Below, piece by piece: positions 5,292 to 18,200 of a DNA stretch of 35,611 bases (within the stretch, counting starts at the first letter, position 1; every line of letters starts with the position of its first letter). The stretch is from Roseburia sp. (lineage in GTDB: Bacteria; Bacillota; Clostridia; Oscillospirales; Ruminococcaceae), in the NCBI GenBank assembly GCA_023666265.1, contig JAMPCH010000029.1, positions 1 to 35,611 of the forward strand, given 5' to 3'. The position numbers and the translations under genes were made by a program. Under the pieces are notes generated by a model. It worked only from the letters and a program-made list of their open reading frames with translations. It had not been told where the DNA came from and did not search any database.

Positions 5292-5331
5292 TTTTCCTCC
5301 TAACGGTTTCGCTGTGAACAAAATATTATGT

Positions 5332-5375
5332 CAACCATTGCCAAAAATCAAAACTTCAACTTTTGGCAATGGTTG
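5332..5375 (-). other. 15-bp intercistronic stem-loop
   Basis: Bases 5332-5346 and 5361-5375 form a perfect 15-bp inverted repeat (CAACCATTGCCAAAA) around a 14-base loop. It sits between the stop of the small Cys-rich gene and the ribosome site of the large lipoprotein gene. No T-run follows on the minus strand, so an mRNA-processing or stability role, or partial attenuation, fits better than full termination. Confidence 0.7.
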
Positions 5376-5394
5376 AACATAAATTTGTGGATCA

Positions 5395-5718
5395 TCAAAA
5401 TCCCACGCCACAATCCCGCTTATAACTGCCGCATGTACTATGAATTTCCGTACACTGATACGCCATGCCTTCTCCGTAAGAATACCCGCAGGAGCATGAT
5501 CTCAAATGACGAAATGAATAATATGTTACGGTACACGTTTTGCCATGCGCTGCTGTTGAGACACCTACCTGAGAGTGATGTGTAAGATAAACATATGTGG
5601 AATCACACTCGCGACCATTCGTTGGATTTGTATGAACAGCACTTGCCGATACTACCATACTCGTCGCCATTACACCCGCCATAGCGATCGCCGTAACTTT
5701 TTTGATGATCTTTTTCAT
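5395..5718 (-). CDS. Small secreted Cys-rich protein (107 aa), unknown function
   Basis: Not a recognised family. ATG5718 is preferred: AAAGGAGG lies eight bases upstream, and a Sec signal peptide (MKKIIKKVTAIAMAGVMATS) follows with a likely cut after ASA at residue 27. The mature part of about 80 residues has seven cysteines (38, 62, 75, 77, 89, 96, 103) and several histidines, including an SCSCGYSYG segment. This suggests disulphides or metal binding outside the cell. A paralog at 15480-15770 shares the leader, length and position but has five cysteines. Both are first genes behind a long leader containing the 131-bp structured repeat, and both precede a propeller lipoprotein. A role as secreted partner, ligand or toxin-like peptide is possible but unproven. 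Confidence 0.7.
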   Translation of the reverse strand: MKKIIKKVTAIAMAGVMATSMVVSASAVHTNPTNGRECDSTYVYLTHHSQVGVSTAAHGKTCTVTYYSFRHLRSCSCGYSYGEGMAYQCTEIHSTCGSYKRDCGVGF

Positions 5719-5880
5719 GATTTTGTCCTCCTTTAAAATTGTCAATATTTTCGTGTTCTTATTGCCGATGTATGAAAAGACTTATAAGCCCAACGGAATT
5801 ACCTTCTTTCAAGATCGTGAACGGTCTTTTCGGGTCGTGTTCGGTAATCGATCGCGAAACCGTTCCATATTTATTATAAG

Positions 5881-6011
5881 AACCACACGCCGTTAGCCGA
5901 ATCAAAGATTCGGACGGCTGAGCGAACCTTGAAACAGATGCTCGCCGCTGAACGCGGCGCGGCGGTTGCACCGCCCGGTCGAAGCAAGACTTCGACCGCA
6001 TCTGTTTGAAG
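5881..6011 (-). repeat. 131-bp structured element, copy 1 (tandem, gene-proximal)
   Basis: Begins AACCACACGCCGTTAGCC, continues with a hairpin (CCGAATC-aaa-GATTCGG extended by GCCGT/ACGGC), then a closing stem (5928-5940 with 5999-6011, 12 of 13 pairs) around three hairpins. The third hairpin is GGTCGAAG-caaga-CTTCGACC. It lies wholly inside the transcribed leader (about 410 nt) of the small Cys-rich gene. The flanking stretch 5719-5880 and the whole block recur at 15771-16064. No known riboswitch class was recognised. Confidence 0.85.
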
Positions 6012-6142
6012 AACCGCACGCCGTTAGCCGAATCAAAGATTCGGACGGCTGAGCGAACCTTAAAATATATGACCGCCGCTGAACGCGGCGCGGCGGCTTG
6101 CGCCGCCTTGTTGGAACTACGTTCCAACACATATATTATAAG
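6012..6142 (-). repeat. 131-bp structured element, copy 2 (tandem, promoter-proximal)
   Basis: Exactly the same length as and directly abutting copy 1. The first part is nearly identical. The closing stem (6059-6071 with 6130-6142) and third hairpin (TGTTGGAAC-tac-GTTCCAACA, 6109-6129) differ in sequence but keep pairing. Two clean compensatory changes in the closing stem (G-C to T-A, C-G to T-A) and a fully replaced 21-nt hairpin argue that the fold is maintained. Its right end contains the -10 box of the promoter. Confidence 0.85.
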
Positions 6143-6163
6143 CCCCAAAAGAACGAATGTCAA
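6135..6163 (-). promoter_or_regulatory. Consensus promoter of the first small Cys-rich gene/lipoprotein operon
   Basis: On the minus strand TTGACA (6163-6158), 17-base spacer, TATAAT (6140-6135). The -10 box coincides with the end of structured element copy 2. The bases upstream of -35 (AAAAACCTATTGACA) are shared with the promoters at 16057-16085 and 22622-22650. Confidence 0.9.
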
Positions 6164-6259
6164 TAGGTTTTTACGTAATTTACAGGGTCGGAGCGTGAAA
6201 AACGACGCAATTTTCCACTTCGATCAAAGGCGGGCGGGAAGCACGCCTTCCCTAAAAAG

Positions 6260-6297
6260 AAAAAAACGAGGTCGATAAGATCGGCGCTCGTTTTTTT
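6260..6297 (-). terminator. Terminator downstream of the 679-aa lipoprotein gene
   Basis: AAAAAAACGAG and CTCGTTTTTTT arms flank a short inner CGAT/ATCG hairpin; T-runs occur on both strands. It ends minus-strand transcription from the lipoprotein genes to the right. Just left of it (6236-6252) lies a copy of the dispersed GGGAAG-CACGC-CTTCCC hairpin. A degenerate version of the terminator is found at 16190-16212. Confidence 0.75.
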
Positions 6298-6309: not shown

Positions 6310-8349
6310 CTATTCGTTTAAGTAGGCGGAGAGCTTACGGTCGGCTTCCTTGATAAATTCGTCGAGGGTGATCTTATCGTCGAGATAATCCTCAAAATCC
6401 GTTCCGTAGATCTCGTAGGGGTACGCGAATCTTATGACGCTGTTCTCTTGGATACGGTGAAGGTCGCGGTAGAGCCTATTTTTATCGTAGATCGACGAAT
6501 CCGCGAACATCATATTCTCGCATACCTCGTTGGTCACGTCGCGCTTAGAGAGCGCGTTTTTGGCGTAGGCGCTCACAAAAGCGAGCGTCTGATCCAAGTT
6601 CTCGGAATAGGGGTTGATACAGAGAAAGACCACGCTCACGATGTTTTTACCGCTCCCCGTAAAGGTCGGCGTATCGACCGCTCTCGCGTTATCCTTCATG
6701 TCGCGTTCATACAGATGTAGGAGTCCATCGCCCCCCTCCAGCGAAAAGGATTCCTCGGTACGGTCTCCGCTTTCCCAAAAAACACTCGCCGTCCAAAAGG
6801 CGTCCGCGTTTCGGACGATCTTATCCTTGATGAGCGAGGCGAGATCGCGAAACTCGGGCGTGTCAAAGCGCCCGTACTCTATGATATAATCGGAAAGCAA
6901 TTTTTCGTAGTAATGATAATCGCTTGAGATTTCGTAATTGGTATTGCCCTTTTGATACTCGCTCAAGACGAGGTCGACAAATTCCTCCGCGTTCATACCT
7001 TCGGAGAAGTCGATCCCCGCGTCCCGACAGATCGCCTCGTTATAGATCATATAGGTGGCTTCGTTTGTGATCGGGAGCATCCAGACGTCGCCGTCCGCGT
7101 TCGTCGCGGCTTCTTTGATATACGGGAAGCACGCGTCAAGATATTCGGAGACCCCCTCTACCTCGTTGAGCGGATAAAACGCGCCCTTATCGCGTATTTG
7201 CGCCGCGAAATCCTGACGGGAATCGGTGAGAAAAATATCGTAATTTTTATCGAGCGATAAGACCGTAAGGGCGAATTGATCGTAATCGATGATCATCTCC
7301 TCGACGGCGAAGCCGCTCGCGCTCGGCGTGTGGGAATTATACTCGCCCATCACGATACGGATCGCGCTGTCGAGCCTCTTAGAGAGCAACGACGAAATAT
7401 CGGTGATCCATACGCCCTCGTTCGCGAGGTTATAAAATTTCCCGTTTGATATTCGACACCTCCCCCATACGCGCGTATCCTCGTCAAACAGGGGGAGCAT
7501 CCCCTCGGACGAGAGCGAGCCGATCACCGCCCCGGAGGCGATATTCAGGCTGTACGCGACAAATTTTTCGTCATCATAGGCGCATATCCCCTCCGGCGTA
7601 CCGAGGTCTTTATACACCTTCTCCGAAAGGCGATCCTCCGCGGGGTCGTAAGTCATAAAATAATAACCCACGTCGTCACAGGCGTAGATCAAGAGCGCTC
7701 CGCTCACGCTTTTTGAGAAATCGAGAACACCGCTCGGGACAAGGGGTGAGATCTCGAGTGTTTTCAGATCGACCCTCATCAGCTGTTCGCCGTTGTCGCG
7801 ATATGTCTCGTTAGCGGTTTGGATCAGCGGGCGCGGGTAGAGACCGAGTAAAAAGAGCGTATCCCCGACGATCTCGACCTTTTTGACGTCTGTACAGTCG
7901 TCAAGGACGAGGAGCTGTTCCGCGCTTTTCTCGTTTTTTTGGTAACGCATGACGACGTGTTTCTCGGTCAAGTCCTCAAACAGGCGCGGCACGGTATAGT
8001 AGAAGCTCCCGTCGTCCGCGAGCGTTAAATTCCGGGGTGCAAGTCCCTCGTCAAAGACATATTCCTCCGTCGGAACGCCGTCGCCGTCAAAGACGGTGAT
8101 CTTACTTTCGTAGGTCGGGTCGGCGGACTCATTTTCGCTTTGATAGGAGCTCGCGACATAGACGGTATCGCCGCTTATGTCGAAGGAGCTGAAATTGTCT
8201 GTTTCGATCAGCGCTTGGGCAACTTTATTTTCGGGGGTGGCTGTCACGTCGGGGACGTTGTCCTCCTGCGGCGAACAGGCGGAGAGCGCGAACAGGGTTG
8301 TAAGCGCCGCGAGGGCGAGCGAGAGCGTTTTTTTGAAGGTCTTATTCAT
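6310..8349 (-). CDS. Lipoprotein: beta-propeller-like region fused to ABC solute-binding domain
   Basis: A 679-residue predicted lipoprotein; AAGGAGG lies seven bases before ATG8349 and the signal peptide ends in lipobox LSAC at about residue 25. About residues 40-330 contain repeated strand units of a propeller (FSSFDISGDTVYVASSYQ, GSFYYTVPRLFE, GKFYNLANEGVWITD). The solute-binding part follows: TVLSLDKNYDIFLTDSR near 363, DKGAFYPLNEVEGVSEYLD near 386, then DGDVWMLPITNEATYMIYNE, the usual ligand-lobe signature. The ending TLDEFIKEADRKLSAYLNE is shared with three paralogs almost at DNA level. No permease or ATPase gene is adjacent; it may share the MalF/MalG pair at 16.6-18.2 kb. A repeated intergenic segment lies upstream. 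The substrate cannot be told. Confidence 0.85.
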   Translation of the reverse strand: MNKTFKKTLSLALAALTTLFALSACSPQEDNVPDVTATPENKVAQALIETDNFSSFDISGDTVYVASSYQSENESADPTYESKITVFDGDGVPTEEYVFDEGLAPRNLTLADDGSFYYTVPRLFEDLTEKHVVMRYQKNEKSAEQLLVLDDCTDVKKVEIVGDTLFLLGLYPRPLIQTANETYRDNGEQLMRVDLKTLEISPLVPSGVLDFSKSVSGALLIYACDDVGYYFMTYDPAEDRLSEKVYKDLGTPEGICAYDDEKFVAYSLNIASGAVIGSLSSEGMLPLFDEDTRVWGRCRISNGKFYNLANEGVWITDISSLLSKRLDSAIRIVMGEYNSHTPSASGFAVEEMIIDYDQFALTVLSLDKNYDIFLTDSRQDFAAQIRDKGAFYPLNEVEGVSEYLDACFPYIKEAATNADGDVWMLPITNEATYMIYNEAICRDAGIDFSEGMNAEEFVDLVLSEYQKGNTNYEISSDYHYYEKLLSDYIIEYGRFDTPEFRDLASLIKDKIVRNADAFWTASVFWESGDRTEESFSLEGGDGLLHLYERDMKDNARAVDTPTFTGSGKNIVSVVFLCINPYSENLDQTLAFVSAYAKNALSKRDVTNEVCENMMFADSSIYDKNRLYRDLHRIQENSVIRFAYPYEIYGTDFEDYLDDKITLDEFIKEADRKLSAYLNE

Positions 8350-12135: not shown

Positions 12136-14109
12136 CTATTCGTTTAAATAGGCGGTGAGCTTACGATCCGCCTCGGCGATGAACTCGTCGAGGGTGAGCT
12201 CGCCGATCAGATAGCGCTCGAGATCGGCGCGGTAAAGGTCGTCGGAATAAGCGTAGCCGACCCGCCCGGCGGAGAAGATCGCGTAAAGGTCGCGGGCGAC
12301 GGCGGTATCGGAATAATTCGCTTGATCCGCGAAGAGGAAGATGTCTTTCAGCGTTTTGATGTATTGCGCCAAGGTCGCGAGATAGTCGAGCGCGTCGCTC
12401 AGGCGGTCGGAGGTCGGATTAACGCAAAGGTAGATCAAGCTGACCGCGTCGCCGTCCGTAGGATAGGGGACGGACGCCGCGCGAAGCGTCGTATTTTTTA
12501 GATAGTCGCAGTAAACGCTCATCTCGGAAATAAATTCGTCGGTCTTATCCTCATACGCGGCGGCGGACGCGATCTCCATATCCAAAAAATTGACGTTCAG
12601 GCTTCCCGCGTCGTAGGGGAAGCGCTCGGCGAAGAGCGCGGCGGTCGCCCGAAACTCGGGGGTGTCAAAGCTCGTGTTCTCGGACAGGTATTTTAACAAA
12701 TATCCCTCGACATACCAATAGGCGCTGTATCCACAGCTTTTATCCAGCCCGTCCGCCTTTATTTTATCGATATGATCAAAATAATCCTCCATCGAAATAT
12801 CGCGCATATCAAATCCCAGCTCGCGGCATTTCTCATCGTTATAATACAGCGCCAAGACCTCGGACGAAACGGGTAAGCACCAGATCTCGCCCTCGTCGTT
12901 GGTACACGCCTCTTTGATATACGGAAACAGCTCGTCCATATATTCCGCGATCCCCGGTACGTCGTTTAGCGGGTAAAAGCTCCCCTTATCGCGGATATTC
13001 CCCGAGATCGGGTCGCGGGAGCTAAGACAACAGAGGTCATAGTCCTTATCCCGCGAGAGGATCTTTAGCGCGGTCTCGTCGTTCCCGAGGCGAAGGAGGC
13101 GTATATCGTAGCCGCAGGAGAAAGGGTTCGCGCCCGACAGATTACTGCTGAGTAGGGTCAGGGTCTTATTCCCCTTATAATACGCCGAGAGCTTGATCCT
13201 CGTAAGCGCCTTGGCGTTATCGTCGAGAAACCAACAAAAGCCGTCGTTGGCGGTAAGCTCGCGGCGATAATCGCCGAAGAGAAAAACGTCGGGCATGATC
13301 TCGGACGCGCCGTCGCCGAAAATATCCCCCGCGACGAGCGTACCGAAATTAAAGCGGCTGATCGAGCTTAGGATATAATTCTCCTCGGAAAAAGCGCACA
13401 TAGACTTTATCTCGCCGAGCTGGTCGGTATAGCTCGGCGCGGTAAGCCCGTTTTTGGTATACCTTCGGAAATAGAAGCCCTCGTCGTCTTGACAGCCGTA
13501 GATGATCACGGAGCCGCCGAAGCCCTCAGCCTCGAACGGGAAATCGGTCACGATCTCGGAGACCGCGCCTTCCTTAAACGAATAGACCGCGCGCCCCGGA
13601 TAATCGACCTGATTGTAGCCGTTGATCAAATAGCGGCACTCCGTACCGGCTTTTCCGCGAGACGAGCCGATCGCGACGATCTCTTCGCCGAGCGACGAAA
13701 CGCTCCGCAGGTCGGACAGCGCGGGAAAGTCGCAGAGCTTCTCGGTCTCGCCCGTCGCGAGATCGAGCCGATCGACCGCCGCGCAGGTATCGCCCGCGTA
13801 GCCGATCAGGAGCGAGCCGTTATCATAATCCATATCGTAAATTTGGAGATATGGGACAGGAAGCTCGGCGGCGATCCCGCCGCCCTCGTCATATCGGCGG
13901 ACGACCGTCCCGCCCTCGGTCAGCTCGGCGACGAAAAGCTCCGCGCCCTCGCCCGCCGTCATCGCCAGCGGGGAATCGTAATCAACGTTATCGTAAACGA
14001 AATAATCGGCGACCGACGTATATCGATCCTCGAGCCCGCTTTGTTTTTGACAGCCGCAGATATTCACGAGCAGAGACGCCGCGCCGACAAGCGCCAAAAT
14101 TTTTTTCAT
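12136..14109 (-). CDS. Lipoprotein: beta-propeller-like region fused to ABC solute-binding domain
   Basis: A 657-residue predicted lipoprotein; signal peptide MKKILALVGAASLLVNICGC with the lipid-modified Cys at residue 20. Propeller-like strands fill about residues 30-340 (DYDNGSLLIGYAGDTCAAVD and similar). The solute-binding region has LKILSRDKDYDLCCLSSRDP, DKGSFYPLNDVPGIAEYMD near 375 and EGEIWCLPVSSEVLALYYND, ending in TLDEFIAEADRKLTAYLNE. Its ATG overlaps the stop of the upstream propeller-only gene (ATGA), so the two are translationally coupled and probably made in similar amounts. This coupling is the best evidence that a propeller-only lipoprotein and a propeller-binding-protein fusion act together. 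Ligand unknown. Confidence 0.85.
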   Translation of the reverse strand: MKKILALVGAASLLVNICGCQKQSGLEDRYTSVADYFVYDNVDYDSPLAMTAGEGAELFVAELTEGGTVVRRYDEGGGIAAELPVPYLQIYDMDYDNGSLLIGYAGDTCAAVDRLDLATGETEKLCDFPALSDLRSVSSLGEEIVAIGSSRGKAGTECRYLINGYNQVDYPGRAVYSFKEGAVSEIVTDFPFEAEGFGGSVIIYGCQDDEGFYFRRYTKNGLTAPSYTDQLGEIKSMCAFSEENYILSSISRFNFGTLVAGDIFGDGASEIMPDVFLFGDYRRELTANDGFCWFLDDNAKALTRIKLSAYYKGNKTLTLLSSNLSGANPFSCGYDIRLLRLGNDETALKILSRDKDYDLCCLSSRDPISGNIRDKGSFYPLNDVPGIAEYMDELFPYIKEACTNDEGEIWCLPVSSEVLALYYNDEKCRELGFDMRDISMEDYFDHIDKIKADGLDKSCGYSAYWYVEGYLLKYLSENTSFDTPEFRATAALFAERFPYDAGSLNVNFLDMEIASAAAYEDKTDEFISEMSVYCDYLKNTTLRAASVPYPTDGDAVSLIYLCVNPTSDRLSDALDYLATLAQYIKTLKDIFLFADQANYSDTAVARDLYAIFSAGRVGYAYSDDLYRADLERYLIGELTLDEFIAEADRKLTAYLNE

Positions 14110-15479: not shown

Positions 15480-15770
15480 TTATCTCTCCGGGCAAGCGGA
15501 ATAACTGTGGGTCTCTTCTGTTCGTTGGCTAGAAGCCAGTGTTCCGCAGGAAGCGCAAACGGTCACGAACGTCCTGTATTTAATCGTTACGTAACAAGTG
15601 ACAATACCGACTTGATGAGTCCGGGACGAATAATGCGGCTCAATCTCTCTGACGGAAACCTTACCGACATGGTCACAGGCAGTCGTACTCGCACTTGCCG
15701 CTAAAGGCATGCTAGTTGCCATTATAGTCGCCAAGGCAATCGCCGTAACTTTTTTAAAAAACTTTTTCAT
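15480..15770 (-). CDS. Small secreted Cys-rich protein (96 aa), paralog of 5395-5718
   Basis: Not a recognised family. ATG15770 follows AAAGGAGG and begins a Sec signal peptide (MKKFFKKVTAIALATIMATS, likely cut after ASA). The mature chain has five cysteines (32, 59, 72, 75, 93), with a CASC pair resembling a metal or disulphide site, plus several histidines. The signal peptide and upstream leader are highly similar to those of the 107-residue paralog, but the mature part has diverged strongly apart from the spacing of some Cys/His residues and a shared HQVG/SQVG segment. This pattern, a conserved leader with a diverged mature region, is common in secreted effectors or recognition peptides (inference). 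It is the first gene of an operon with two lipoproteins. Confidence 0.7.
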   Translation of the reverse strand: MKKFFKKVTAIALATIMATSMPLAASASTTACDHVGKVSVREIEPHYSSRTHQVGIVTCYVTIKYRTFVTVCASCGTLASSQRTEETHSYSACPER

Positions 15771-15933
15771 GATTATGTCCTCCTTTAAAATTGTCAATAT
15801 TTTCGTGTTCTTATTGCCGATTTACGAAAAGACTTATAAGCCCAACGGAATCACCTTCTTTCGAGATCATGAACGGTCTTTTCGGGTCGCGTTCGATAAT
15901 CGACCGCGAAACCCGTCCCATATTTATTATAAG

Positions 15934-16064
15934 AACCGCACGCCGTTAGCCGAATCAAAGATTCGGACGGCTGAGCGAACCTTAAAATATATGACCGCCG
16001 CTGAACGCGGCGCGGCGGCTTGCGCCGCCTTGTTGGAACGTAGTTCCAACACATATATTATAAG
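15934..16064 (-). repeat. 131-bp structured element, copy 3 (single)
   Basis: Nearly identical to copy 2 (6012-6142) over its whole length. The third hairpin is the same 9-bp stem but with loop GTA instead of TAC, i.e. the loop is reverse-complemented. TATTATAAG occurs at both borders (15925-15933 and 16056-16064), resembling a 9-base target duplication. Unlike the other locus there is only one copy, which gives a leader of about 280 nt. Confidence 0.85.
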
Positions 16065-16085
16065 CCCTAAAAGAACGAATGTCAA
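16057..16085 (-). promoter_or_regulatory. Consensus promoter of the second small Cys-rich gene operon
   Basis: Minus-strand TTGACA (16085-16080), 17-base spacer, TATAAT (16062-16057). Same relation to the structured element and same upstream bases as the promoter at 6135-6163. Confidence 0.9.
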
Positions 16086-16157
16086 TAGGTTTTTGCGTAA
16101 TTTACAAGATCGGAGCGTGAAAAACGACGGGATCACCCGCTTCGATCAAAGCCGGGC

Positions 16158-16174
16158 GGGAAGCACGCCTTCCC
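16158..16174. repeat. Dispersed GGGAAG/CTTCCC hairpin (representative copy)
   Basis: GGGAAG-CACGC-CTTCCC followed by an A-rich stretch. Related hairpins occur between genes at 6236-6252, 8535-8561, 12069-12095, 22959-22984, 29648-29675 and 33575-33606, usually with the form GGAAGGCG...CGCCTTCC. None is followed by a T-run on either strand, so they are not ordinary terminators. Confidence 0.7.
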
Positions 16175-16219
16175 TAAAAAATAAAAGAAAAAAACGAGAT
16201 CGATAAAAACCGGCGCTTG

Positions 16220-16630
16220 TTATTTCCTTTCGCGAACCTCCGCGCCGTCGTAGAGCTCGCCGTCATACTCGGTCACGATACGATCCGAGAAGGAAATTCC
16301 CGAGATCACCTCGGCATAGCCGTCGCGGTGTTCGCCCGTCTGAATGGGGACGAGGCGGACGAAGTCGCGCTTCGTCCCGTTTTTATCGGCGGAATAGATC
16401 ACGTAGACGCCGCTCTCGAGCATGGCTTCGGAGACGGCGGTCTTGGTCATGCTCCCCGTTTGGGGGGCGCCGTTTTCGTCGAAGTATTCGTAGGGGAACG
16501 GCTTTTGTTCGGGGCGGGCGGTCGTCACCGTCGGGAGCGAGGCGGTATGGATCGTCTCCGCGAAAAGGGTCAGGAACAACATTCCCGCGAAGAAGAGGAT
16601 CGTCAAAAGAAGGAGTATTTTTTTCGTCAT
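16220..16630 (-). CDS. Membrane-anchored protein resembling the C-terminal part of an efflux adaptor (HlyD/MFP-like)
   Basis: A 136-residue protein with one N-terminal membrane segment (about residues 5-25) and an extracytoplasmic domain. The part GVYVIYSADKNGTKRDFVRLVP and onward (QTGEHRDGYAEVISGISFSDRIVTEYDGELYDGAEVRER) closely follows the consensus of the last beta-rich domain of HlyD/RND-type membrane fusion proteins (VRRVPVKTG, GYVEVLSGL, GDRVVTE, DGAKV). The hairpin and lipoyl domains of a full adaptor are absent. It is the last gene of the transporter operon and its start overlaps the permease stop (ATGA), so it is probably an accessory of this permease pair. A link between the permease and the surface lipoproteins is an inference. 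Confidence 0.6.
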   Translation of the reverse strand: MTKKILLLLTILFFAGMLFLTLFAETIHTASLPTVTTARPEQKPFPYEYFDENGAPQTGSMTKTAVSEAMLESGVYVIYSADKNGTKRDFVRLVPIQTGEHRDGYAEVISGISFSDRIVTEYDGELYDGAEVRERK

Positions 16631-17388
16631 GATAAGTCCCCCAAGGTCAGTCCTTTTTCGAGATTTTGGTTAAAGAATAAATATAAGATCAGTACGGGGA
16701 TCAAGAAGATCACCGCCGCCGGGAAAAGCACCTCGCCCTCGTAGCTTTGGGCGTTCGTGATAAAGACGGAGAGCGTTTTTAGGCGGTCGTCCTTTAAAAA
16801 GAGCATCGGCTGTTCGAACATATTCCAGCAATCCGCGAAGACGAACAGGATCACGGCGAGGATACAGACGCGAAGCTGGGGGATCACGCTCGTGAAGAGG
16901 ATACGGAGGATCGAGCTTGTCTCGAGGCGCGTCGCCTCGATCACGGAATGATCGATATTTTTCATATACTGGTGCATGACCACAACGCCGAAGGGGCTGA
17001 AGATCATCGGGAGAATGATCCCCCACGGGGTATCAACCAAGCCCATATCGCGAAGCCCGATATAATTCGGGAGGATCGTGACCTGTAACGGCATCATCAT
17101 CAGAATAATATAAAAAACGAAGAGCGCGCCCTTCCCCCGAAACTTCGCCTGAGAAAAACCGAACGCGCAGGGGATAATAACGGCGAGCTGGACGAGCGTG
17201 ATCGCGGCGGCGTAGAGGACACTATTCCAGAACATCGGGTAGAAAATAAAGCAGTCGAACAAAAGATCGGAATAACCCCGAAGCGAAGGACTTCCATAAG
17301 AAATAAAAGAAAACAAAACGGTAGCCGCCACGGGGAGGATAAAGACCGCCGCGAGGACGGTAAAAAGTACGGCGCTTAGTTTTTTCAT
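16627..17388 (-). CDS. ABC transporter permease, carbohydrate type 2 (MalG-like)
   Basis: A 253-residue inner-membrane subunit with about six membrane segments, typical length for the MalG family. The cytoplasmic coupling helix is recognisable (VIEATRLETSSILRILFTSVIPQLR), but the usual EAA-x3-G core is altered: the invariant Gly is replaced by Thr and the third residue of EAA is Thr. A conserved Q/P-rich segment (MMMPLQVTILPNYIGL) is present. It overlaps its MalF-like partner by four bases on one side and the adaptor-like gene by four on the other, so all are translationally coupled. No ATPase gene is present in the window; such transporters often share one MsmX-like ATPase encoded elsewhere. 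Confidence 0.9.
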   Translation of the reverse strand: MKKLSAVLFTVLAAVFILPVAATVLFSFISYGSPSLRGYSDLLFDCFIFYPMFWNSVLYAAAITLVQLAVIIPCAFGFSQAKFRGKGALFVFYIILMMMPLQVTILPNYIGLRDMGLVDTPWGIILPMIFSPFGVVVMHQYMKNIDHSVIEATRLETSSILRILFTSVIPQLRVCILAVILFVFADCWNMFEQPMLFLKDDRLKTLSVFITNAQSYEGEVLFPAAVIFLIPVLILYLFFNQNLEKGLTLGDLS

Positions 17389-18200
17389 CGATTATACCTC
17401 CGTTGGATCAAAAGCCCCGCCGCGACGATCGCGAAAACGAGGATCGAGGTAAGGACCGCCGAGGTCGCCAAGCTCTGATAGTCGAGCTTTAAAAAATTAT
17501 TGTTCATATAATATTGGAGGGTATAGCTATGGTCGGGCGGATAGTTCGTTCCGTAAAATAAATAGCTCTCTTTAAAAATTTTGAAGCTGTTCACGATCGA
17601 GAGGAGCGCGGTAAAAAAGACGGTCGGGGCGATCATCGGGATCGTGATCTTTAGGTGAAGGGTAAAGCGCCCCGCGCCGTCGAGCCGCGCCGCCTCAAAA
17701 ACGCTCCCCTCGATCGAGGTGAACGCGGCGGTCAGGAGGACGACGCAGATCCCGATATTCTTCCAGATAAAGAGGAGGTAGATCGGGAGGGCGGTCGCGC
17801 TCTCGGCGAAGACGCTCCGCCAGATCAGGACGATACTCGCGGTCGGGATCACCATCGGGAGGACGAACGCGAACCGCGTTTTACGCAGGAGCTTGATCCC
17901 GTAGGAAAGGGCGAGCGAGACGATGAGCGCAAGCACCATTAAGATCGGGACGGCGATCGCGATCAGGAGGAGCGAATTTTTGAGCGCCAGCAGGAAGTAC
18001 TCGTTTGAGAGCGTTTTTATGTAGTTATCGAAGCCTACGAAATTACGGCGAAACTGGTTATCGATCAGGGAGTAGTATAGGACGCGGACATAGGGGATCA
18101 CGAAGAAGATCGCCGTCCCGACGAGGCTCGGGAGGAGGCAGAGCTTACATTTCGTGTTCCATTTCAGGCGTTTTTTCGGCTTTTTGGTTTGAGCTTTCAT
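17385..18200 (-). CDS. ABC transporter permease, carbohydrate type 1 (MalF-like)
   Basis: A 271-residue membrane subunit with about six membrane segments and a canonical coupling motif, EAARLDGAGRFTLHLKITIPM. The N-terminal stretch is Lys/Arg-rich (KAQTKKPKKRLKWNTKCKL), followed by LLPSLVGTAIFFVIPYVRVLYYSLID, the usual start of sugar-type MalF proteins. It begins 12 bases after the stop of the fusion lipoprotein at 18213 and overlaps the MalG-like gene by four bases. The pair forms the channel for solutes delivered by the surface binding lipoproteins. It is the only permease pair in the 19-kb lipoprotein island. Confidence 0.92.
   Translation of the reverse strand: MKAQTKKPKKRLKWNTKCKLCLLPSLVGTAIFFVIPYVRVLYYSLIDNQFRRNFVGFDNYIKTLSNEYFLLALKNSLLLIAIAVPILMVLALIVSLALSYGIKLLRKTRFAFVLPMVIPTASIVLIWRSVFAESATALPIYLLFIWKNIGICVVLLTAAFTSIEGSVFEAARLDGAGRFTLHLKITIPMIAPTVFFTALLSIVNSFKIFKESYLFYGTNYPPDHSYTLQYYMNNNFLKLDYQSLATSAVLTSILVFAIVAAGLLIQRRYNR

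What the first reader, a model, noticed from the sequence alone, without database searches (positions are those of the whole stretch)
5881..6142. Exact tandem pair of a 131-bp structured element with compensatory changes
Two abutting copies of identical length share the first 45 bases but differ in the closing stem and third hairpin while pairing is kept. Closing stem: 12 of 13 pairs in each copy, with two clean compensatory exchanges (G-C to T-A, C-G to T-A). Third hairpin: GGTCGAAG/CTTCGACC in one copy, TGTTGGAAC/GTTCCAACA in the other, both 21 nt. This is strong within-sequence evidence that the fold itself is under selection or is generated by a structure-dependent mechanism. The fold, one side hairpin plus a closing stem around three hairpins, matches no RNA class I know.
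Basis: partly seen in the sequence, partly recalled or inferred. Interest (0 to 1): 0.85.

Follow-up and report, generated by a model that had tools for sequence, protein, structure and literature searches.

The report
Mobile DNA hairpins in tandem arrays
The two abutting copies belong to a widespread family of short, gene-less DNA hairpin elements of Clostridia that insert cleanly after the letters TAT, often inside promoters, and stack head to tail; what moves them is unknown.

Summary
In detail: two abutting, strongly folded 131-bp copies whose arms have diverged with pairing kept. They belong to a dispersed family: eleven places in this genome, 81 and 59 hits in the genomes of Anaeromassilibacillus senegalensis and Clostridium sp. 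D33t1, matches in 21 of 394 genomes of the order and 24 of 391 of the class. Borders are T|AAN, so the window units are 5878-6008 and 6009-6139. Three filled/empty site pairs show clean insertion after TAT; one of them allows at most one duplicated base. Units of different kinds stack exactly head to tail. Helices covary almost without G-U pairs (10 of 1805 cells; tRNA control 46 of 436), which points to DNA, not RNA. One strand of the closing stem matches the element's own end. AAT- and AAC-class elements sit in promoter -10 boxes; the window's AAG class does not. The mover is unknown: no Y1 transposase in 6 of 11 carriers, no IS110 transposase over cut-off in 10 of 10, no integron integrase over cut-off in 12 of 12. 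Best reading: hairpin cassettes recombined site-specifically, like attC or IS608 ends but members of neither family.

The parts
5878..6008 (+). Unit 1 (131 nt, AAG...GTTTG)
   Evidence: Family border T|AAN; absent from the paralogous region at 16 kb
6009..6139 (+). Unit 2 (131 nt, AAG...TTAT)
   Evidence: R1 match 6009-6062
5878..5930 (+). Conserved first hairpin (hp1, AAG...CTT) of unit 1
   Evidence: Alignment A1 and model R1
6009..6061 (+). Conserved first hairpin (hp1) of unit 2
5928..5941 (+). Unit 1 closing stem, 5' arm (guide-like strand); pairs with 5998-6011
   Evidence: mismatch 5931/6008 is G.G
5998..6011 (+). Unit 1 closing stem, 3' arm; last three bases (AAG) are the start of unit 2
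5943..5997 (+). Three inner hairpins of unit 1 (5943-5959, 5961-5975, 5977-5997)
6059..6071 (+). Unit 2 closing stem, 5' arm; pairs with 6130-6142
6074..6129 (+). Three inner hairpins of unit 2 (6074-6090, 6092-6107, 6109-6129)
6130..6142 (+). Unit 2 closing stem, 3' arm (CATATATTAT plus the following AAG of the flank)
5871..5877 (+). Left target flank TTATTAT
15931..16061 (+). Third copy, single unit of the unit-2 kind
5639..6296 (+). Intergenic region paralogous to 15691-16225 (two pieces, 89% and 91% identical); differs from it by one unit
   Evidence: BLAST

Best explanation
The pair is two stacked copies of a small gene-less mobile DNA element (66 to 131 bp in the family). SHOWN: each unit is a conserved hairpin (hp1) followed by a variable stretch usually closed by a stem; at three sites the element or array lies cleanly after TAT where a relative has the uninterrupted site; units stack head to tail at the same joint, different kinds mixed; pairing is kept by two-sided changes with almost no G-U; the base after NTT and the last base of the unit form a non-Watson-Crick pair. 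INFERRED: the element moves as a folded single DNA strand. When its two ends are joined (circle or array), its 3' end X plus AAN faces NTT plus rc(X), which extends hp1 into one long hairpin with an unpaired spot at the joint. A strand-specific recombinase cuts between T and A there and joins the ends to a TAT|A target. AAT- and AAC-class elements bring AAT or AAC on the left and mostly TAT on the right, so a -10 box is rebuilt on both sides and insertion into a promoter is tolerated. The enzyme is not identified; I favour a recombinase working on folded hairpins as the integron integrase does, with an IS608-type enzyme second.
For: Three filled/empty pairs between A. senegalensis and Clostridium sp. 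D33t1, inserts of 904, 582 and 90 bp. The window locus and its paralogue differ by one unit. Mixed-kind arrays with exact joints, e.g. periods 125, 90, 125, 125 in L129. Covariation: 98.2% of cells paired, 53 two-sided changes, 0 of 500 shuffles as high on four of five measures, 70 of 500 on the fifth. G-U 10 and other mismatches 35 of 1805 cells against G-U 46 of 436 in tRNAs. Closing strand matches own end at 5.7 of 7 against 3.6 for other units; joint pair non-Watson-Crick in 81 of 82 units. Target logo TAT|AAN. AAT and AAC classes: TGn and a -35 peak at a 17-nt spacer. Insertions at the same TAT|AA in duplicated tRNA-Arg(CCT) sequence.
Against: No enzyme and no autonomous copy found. Guide-target match beyond class membership is weak (p 0.03). 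No replication-strand bias in the AAG class (30 of 65). L005 keeps no closing stem. In D33t1 several orthologous sites have only remnants, so loss as well as gain occurs, and direction of the three polymorphisms rests on the empty site looking like an intact sequence. Single-strand substrate not tested.
Confidence: 0.5

Rival explanations
1. A non-autonomous relative of IS200/IS605 or REP/RAYT elements moved by a Y1 HUH transposase in trans: hairpin recognition, insertion just 3' of a short TTAT-like target, no target duplication, DNA guide pairing.
For: Same kind of insertion and guide logic as IS608 (PMC5934647, passages); Y1 genes exist in 5 of 11 carriers tested, among them G357 with 37 elements.
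Against: No Y1_Tnp match in 6 of 11 carriers including G126 (81 elements), G058 (59) and G000; the guide-like strand lies 3' of hp1, not 5' of the hairpin foot; the second half is not a second copy of the first hairpin; no replication-strand bias in the AAG class.
Confidence: 0.2
2. No mobility today: old repeats whose arrays expand and shrink by slippage and homologous recombination, and whose arms are kept perfect by template switching inside palindromes.
For: Unit numbers differ between orthologous arrays, e.g. 1/6, 5/2, 6/2 by my scan; perfect arms without G-U are what palindrome correction gives.
Against: Clean filled/empty pairs; arrays of mixed unit kinds with exact joints; same target motif at unrelated places.
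Confidence: 0.15
3. A structured RNA: a 5' leader or small RNA starting at the -10 box, with the fold selected in RNA.
For: In the AAT and AAC classes hp1 starts just downstream of a real promoter; 74 of 108 arrays with a scored downstream gene have it on the same strand; stable fold.
Against: G-U avoidance; the AAG class, with the window copies, has no promoter signal; window copies precede no same-strand gene; no Rfam match.
Confidence: 0.08
4. A classical MITE moved by a DDE transposase with an AT-rich target duplication (TA or ATTATA) hidden by target preference.
For: Many own-genome copies show ATTATA on both sides.
Against: Site L261/L314 leaves room for at most one duplicated base; the right-hand T is the element's own, since units may end in G; the ends are not inverted repeats of each other (sequence).
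Confidence: 0.05

Closest known systems
Integron gene cassettes and attC sites
   Same: Hairpin kept by structure rather than sequence, with outer box, unpaired spacer, inner box with unpaired bases and variable tip (PMC2727003, passages); tandem arrays; site split between the two ends of the unit.
   Different: No integron integrase over the curated cut-off in 12 of 12 carriers; units carry no gene that I found; cut is T|A three bases outside the unpaired spacer, not in a GTT/AAC R box; no attI platform seen.
IS200/IS605 elements (IS608) and their non-autonomous relatives
   Same: Insertion just 3' of a short target, no duplication, DNA guide that pairs with cleavage site and target (PMC5934647, passages).
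   Different: No Y1 match in 6 of 11 carriers; guide-like strand 3' of hp1; hp1 and second half differ.
REP/BIME and REPINs with TnpA-REP
   Same: Short palindromic intergenic repeats with a conserved bulge, often in tandem (PMC8266576, passages; REPINs PMC3116915, search listing only).
   Different: No GTAG head; unit is not two inverted REPs; Y1 enzyme absent from several carriers.
IS110 with bridge RNA
   Same: One segment that matches both donor end and target (PMC11208160, search listing only).
   Different: No IS110 transposase over cut-off in 10 of 10 carriers, two weak matches below it; here the guide-like strand is in the element's own DNA.

Membership tests
Integron cassette / attC | Integron integrase (IntI) in the genome | tested here: not met
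   TIGR02249: 0 of 12 carriers over cut-off; sub-cut-off matches in 12 of 12 and in 14 of 14 control genomes, i.e. other tyrosine recombinases
Integron cassette / attC | R boxes RYYYAAC/GTTRRRY with the cut inside them | tested here: not met
   Outer pairs are AAN/NTT, N = G in 68, T in 59, C in 12, A in 2 of 141 first units; joint is T|AAN
Integron cassette / attC | Folded hairpin with unpaired spacer, unpaired inner bases and variable tip | tested here: met
   Alignment and pair counts
IS200/IS605 or REP/RAYT | Y1 HUH transposase available | tested here: inconclusive
   PF01797: none in 6 of 11 carriers, present in 5; 2 of 7 genomes without known elements also have it
IS200/IS605 | Insertion 3' of a fixed short target without duplication | tested here: met
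IS200/IS605 | Guide sequence 5' of each end hairpin | tested here: not met
   The complementary strand lies 3' of hp1
IS110 bridge-RNA elements | IS110 transposase available | tested here: not met
   PF01548: 0 of 10 carriers over cut-off
Classical DDE MITE | Terminal inverted repeats and a target duplication | tested here: not met
   Ends are not inverted repeats (sequence); site L261/L314 leaves at most one duplicated base
Structured RNA family | Covariation including G-U pairs | tested here: not met
   10 G-U against 35 other mismatches in 1805 cells; tRNA control 46 of 436
Known Rfam family | Match to an Rfam model | tested here: not met
   No match on the elements at E up to 10 in the window stretch, none over gathering score in 15 loci

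The most novel reading that the evidence does not exclude
An undescribed single-strand recombination system of Clostridia: gene-less cassettes whose own internal DNA strand pairs with the cassette end and with the target, so that one short guide marks both partners, with a kept mismatch at the cut. In the AAT and AAC classes it inserts into the -10 box, perhaps into the melted strand of an open promoter, and rebuilds a -10 box on both sides, stacking cassettes between a promoter and its gene.
Probability: 0.3. Interest if true: 0.85.

Novelty: new variant of a known kind. Interest (0 to 1): 0.6.

Why it matters
Few systems are known that recombine folded single-stranded DNA; integron attC sites and IS608 are those I read about. 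Here is a widespread family with dozens of copies in sequenced genomes of named strains, clean filled/empty site pairs, and a natural series of guide, end and target combinations. Finding the enzyme would test whether attC-like recombination exists outside integrons and whether promoters are the actual target. It would also explain a class of tandem intergenic repeats in Clostridia at which several assemblies end.

Tried and rejected
RNA reading: rejected as the main one because of G-U avoidance. Caveat: my pattern forced Watson-Crick at pair 3 and at two of three pairs 7-9, and the genome pattern fixed further stem bases. The six pairs 21-35 to 26-30, which neither forced, give 4 G-U and 22 other mismatches in 570 cells, so the conclusion stands on them alone. 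The tRNA control is biased towards pairing by ARAGORN.

Large cassettes with a gene between hp1 and its closing end: looked for up to 6 kb downstream of 198 hp1 hits within the fetched loci; convincing ends lie within about 150 nt, longer ones look like chance or opposite arrays. A common neighbouring mover: 536 neighbouring ORFs clustered; the largest cluster is 8 diverse ORFs in 6 loci, two of which I confirmed as large serine recombinases by Pfam; a neighbourhood, not a shared gene. Three clustered tyrosine recombinase hits in G058: one lies beside SpoIIM and I take it for XerD (synteny recalled). Replication strand: AAG class 30 of 65, AAT class 40 of 58 on the G-rich strand, which follows gene direction. 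Guide against target flank: 160 matches against 138 +- 6 over all, p 0.03 within N classes. The arms test used units chosen for having arms, so I rely. The first tRNA parse took 5 tRNAs and was replaced.

Papers: searches listed no description of this family in the held open-access library; most subscription papers are not in it. PMC2727003, PMC5934647 and PMC8266576 were seen as passages; the others as search listings only.

Full report
OBSERVATION. The window holds two abutting 131-nt copies at 5881-6011 and 6012-6142. They differ at 34 of 131 positions, only one of them in the first 50. Each folds below 200 of 200 shuffles (z -7.4 and -7.9). In unit 1 the closing stem has 13 pairs and a G.G mismatch; in unit 2 it has 12 pairs and an A.A mismatch.

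FAMILY. The pair used as a query matched 11 places in the own genome: by my reading seven full units and five partial ones, three of the partial ones at contig ends with hp1 or part of it. A pattern for hp1 gave 10 hits, nine exact. Of 60 near genomes, own included, 14 matched by DNA. From 20 aligned hp1 sequences I built model R1. R1 matched 21 of 394 genomes of the order, 24 of 391 of the class and 12 of 398 of the phylum, own genome included each time. In seven of those 12 every listed match covers only the inner part of the model; see the distant form below. Rich carriers in a deeper search of 16 genomes are G126 with 81 hits, G058 with 59, G357 with 37 and G026 with 17. G126 and G058 have the contig lengths of Anaeromassilibacillus senegalensis mt9 and Clostridium sp. 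D33t1_170424_F3. A pattern scan of named genomes gave 102 stretches, with titles such as Ruminiclostridium, Oscillospiraceae, Ruminococcus and Clostridia bacterium. Two IMG/VR contigs matched the pattern; blastn found nothing in the phage and plasmid collections. No Rfam family matches the elements.

ANATOMY. Each unit starts AAN-AAC-C with hp1: outer pairs AAN/NTT, a 3x3 AAC/AAC loop, CNC/GNG, an unpaired A.A and a T, CGCCGT/ACGGC, a 3-base bulge and a variable tip. NTT is followed, mostly, by G and a strand that pairs with the unit's own 3' end. Between these lie a small loop, three hairpins (the window kind) or weakly structured sequence. Tandem periods run from 66 to 131, with one 152 that is a double step. 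In 82 unique units whose borders are both fixed by neighbouring units, the closing strand matches the own end at 5.7 of 7 positions, against 3.6 for ends of units with another guide; 50 of 82 reach 6 or 7, 32 do not. The base after NTT and the last base of the unit are G/T in 46, G/G in 26, T/T in 8, G/A in 1 and A/T in 1. Collapsed to 46 distinct guide and end combinations, 45 are non-Watson-Crick. Related units are not independent.

DNA, NOT RNA. In 20 sequences 98.2% of cells pair, with 53 two-sided changes; none of 500 shuffles reaches this on four measures, 70 of 500 do on the number of pair types. In 95 unique hp1 sequences 1760 cells are Watson-Crick, 10 G-U and 35 other mismatches. In 21 unique tRNAs from the same loci 46 of 436 pairs are G-U. 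Part of the stem was forced by my patterns; the six apical pairs 21-35 to 26-30, which were free, give 4 G-U and 22 other mismatches in 570 cells. In 36 three-hairpin units G-U makes 20 of 980 predicted pairs.

INSERTION. Over 126 first-unit flanks the base before AAN is T in 98%, before that A in 94% and before that T in 83%. At three orthologous loci A. senegalensis is filled and D33t1 uninterrupted. L248: GGGTAT|904 bp|AATAAAA against GGGTATAATAAAA. L255: ATGGTAT|582 bp|AATGACT against ATGGTATAATAACT. L261: GGTAT|one 90-bp unit|ACTGGG against GATATACTGGG. The first two leave up to three bases (AAT) formally ambiguous, L261 one. I queried flanks of eleven arrays. Besides these three, L247 is not occupied in D33t1 but its left flank had diverged; L245, L252 and L265 carry units or remnants there; L244, L250, L253 and L257 were not examined closely in D33t1. 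Matches of L250 and L257 in two further genomes of the genus were too diverged at the site to call. At other orthologous arrays unit numbers differ by my scan, which misses decayed units: 1/6, 1/3, 5/2, 6/2, 3/2, 4/3, 2/1. In the window, 5639-6296 and its paralogue 15691-16225 differ by one unit. The same target is used in duplicated tRNA-Arg(CCT) sequence beside an intact gene in L052, L055, L057, L059 and L062, and by sequence alone in L126 and L225.

PROMOTERS. Among 141 non-redundant first-unit flanks, the AAT class (59) has TAT in 97% and TGn before it in 80%, and the TTGACA match peaks at a 17-nt spacer (mean 2.49 of 6; other spacers from 8 to 39 give 1.29 to 1.93). The AAC class (12) behaves alike (TAT 100%, TGn 83%, 2.83 at 17 nt). 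The AAG class (68), the window's own, does not (TAT 69%, TGn 9%, 1.38 at 17 nt). So AAT- and AAC-class units sit in -10 boxes. Either promoters are the target or promoter-neutral insertions are what survives; I cannot separate these. Of 108 arrays with a scored downstream gene, 74 have it on the same strand.

MECHANISM. Clean insertion, a recognition hairpin kept by DNA-type pairing, a kept mismatch at the joint and exact stacking of unlike units point to site-specific recombination of a hairpin rather than to a DDE transposase or to slippage. In joined form the unit end X plus AAN faces NTT, G and rc(X), which lengthens hp1 and sets an unpaired spot at T|A. This resembles attC, with its paired boxes, unpaired central spacer, extrahelical bases and variable tip (PMC2727003, passages), and IS608, where a DNA guide pairs with cleavage site and target (PMC5934647, passages). 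Neither membership holds. No integron integrase is over cut-off in 12 of 12 carriers. No Y1 transposase matches in 6 of 11 carriers: G000, G021, G012, G058, G126 and G350; the other five carriers have one. No IS110 transposase is over cut-off in 10 of 10. The single-strand step and the class of enzyme are inference.

AGAINST. No mover and no autonomous copy found; the guide-target match beyond class is weak; no strand bias in the AAG class; L005 lost its closing-stem pairing; 32 of 82 tandem units have weak closing stems by my 7-base test. Counts come from related sequences.

DISTANT FORM. In G903, G1161, G1123 and G826 the inner hp1 sits near the tip of one long palindrome. The arms are perfect over 16 bp in L325 and L324 (AGCTCGCATGTATTAT/ATAATACATGCGAGCT in L325) and over 10 bp in L326; L325 folds at z -7.0 as DNA. 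G903 has 14 scored hits, G1161 nine, G1123 and G826 one each. This nested arrangement is what I infer for the joined form of the window family; whether it is the same system is open.

VERDICT. A real and widespread family of mobile DNA hairpins with an unknown mover; not shown to be, and unlikely to be, an RNA class; not described in the papers that my searches could reach.

Noticed in passing
L324, L325, L326, L327 near 1455-1610: A dispersed long palindrome in other lineages of the phylum carries the same inner hairpin at its tip between perfect arms (16 bp in L324 and L325).
   Followed up: partly
L028 and L027: Second halves that are a palindrome containing a complete promoter (TTGACA-17-TATAAT in L028, TTGACG-17-TATAAT in L027); in L028 nearly the same promoter also flanks the element upstream.
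   Followed up: partly
L172, L207, L217, L224, L133, L166: Diverse serine recombinase-like ORFs lie near hp1 elements; two (L172, L217) confirmed by Pfam. L224 is an IMG/VR contig.
   Followed up: partly
L052, L055, L057, L059, L062, L126, L225: Duplicated tRNA-Arg(CCT) sequence is hit repeatedly at GGATAT|AA in different genomes, next to an intact tRNA gene.
   Followed up: partly
L229 from 1501: Variant in which the AAC/AAC internal loop is replaced by a fully paired AAAGAC/GTCTTT.
   Followed up: no
L005 from 1501: Own-genome copy with a unit-1-like 5' arm and a unit-2-like 3' arm, so that the closing stem is broken; looks like a recombinant.
   Followed up: no
window 5314-5396: A long near-perfect palindrome upstream of the pair (AACCATTGCCAAAAATCAAAACTTCAACTTTTGGCAATGGTTGA in its middle) that gave only chance-level microRNA-precursor matches in Rfam.
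   Followed up: no
window 6310-8349, 12136-14109, 16627-18200: Solute-binding-like and permease genes of sugar-type transporters, with paralogous intergenic regions that both carry the element.
   Followed up: no
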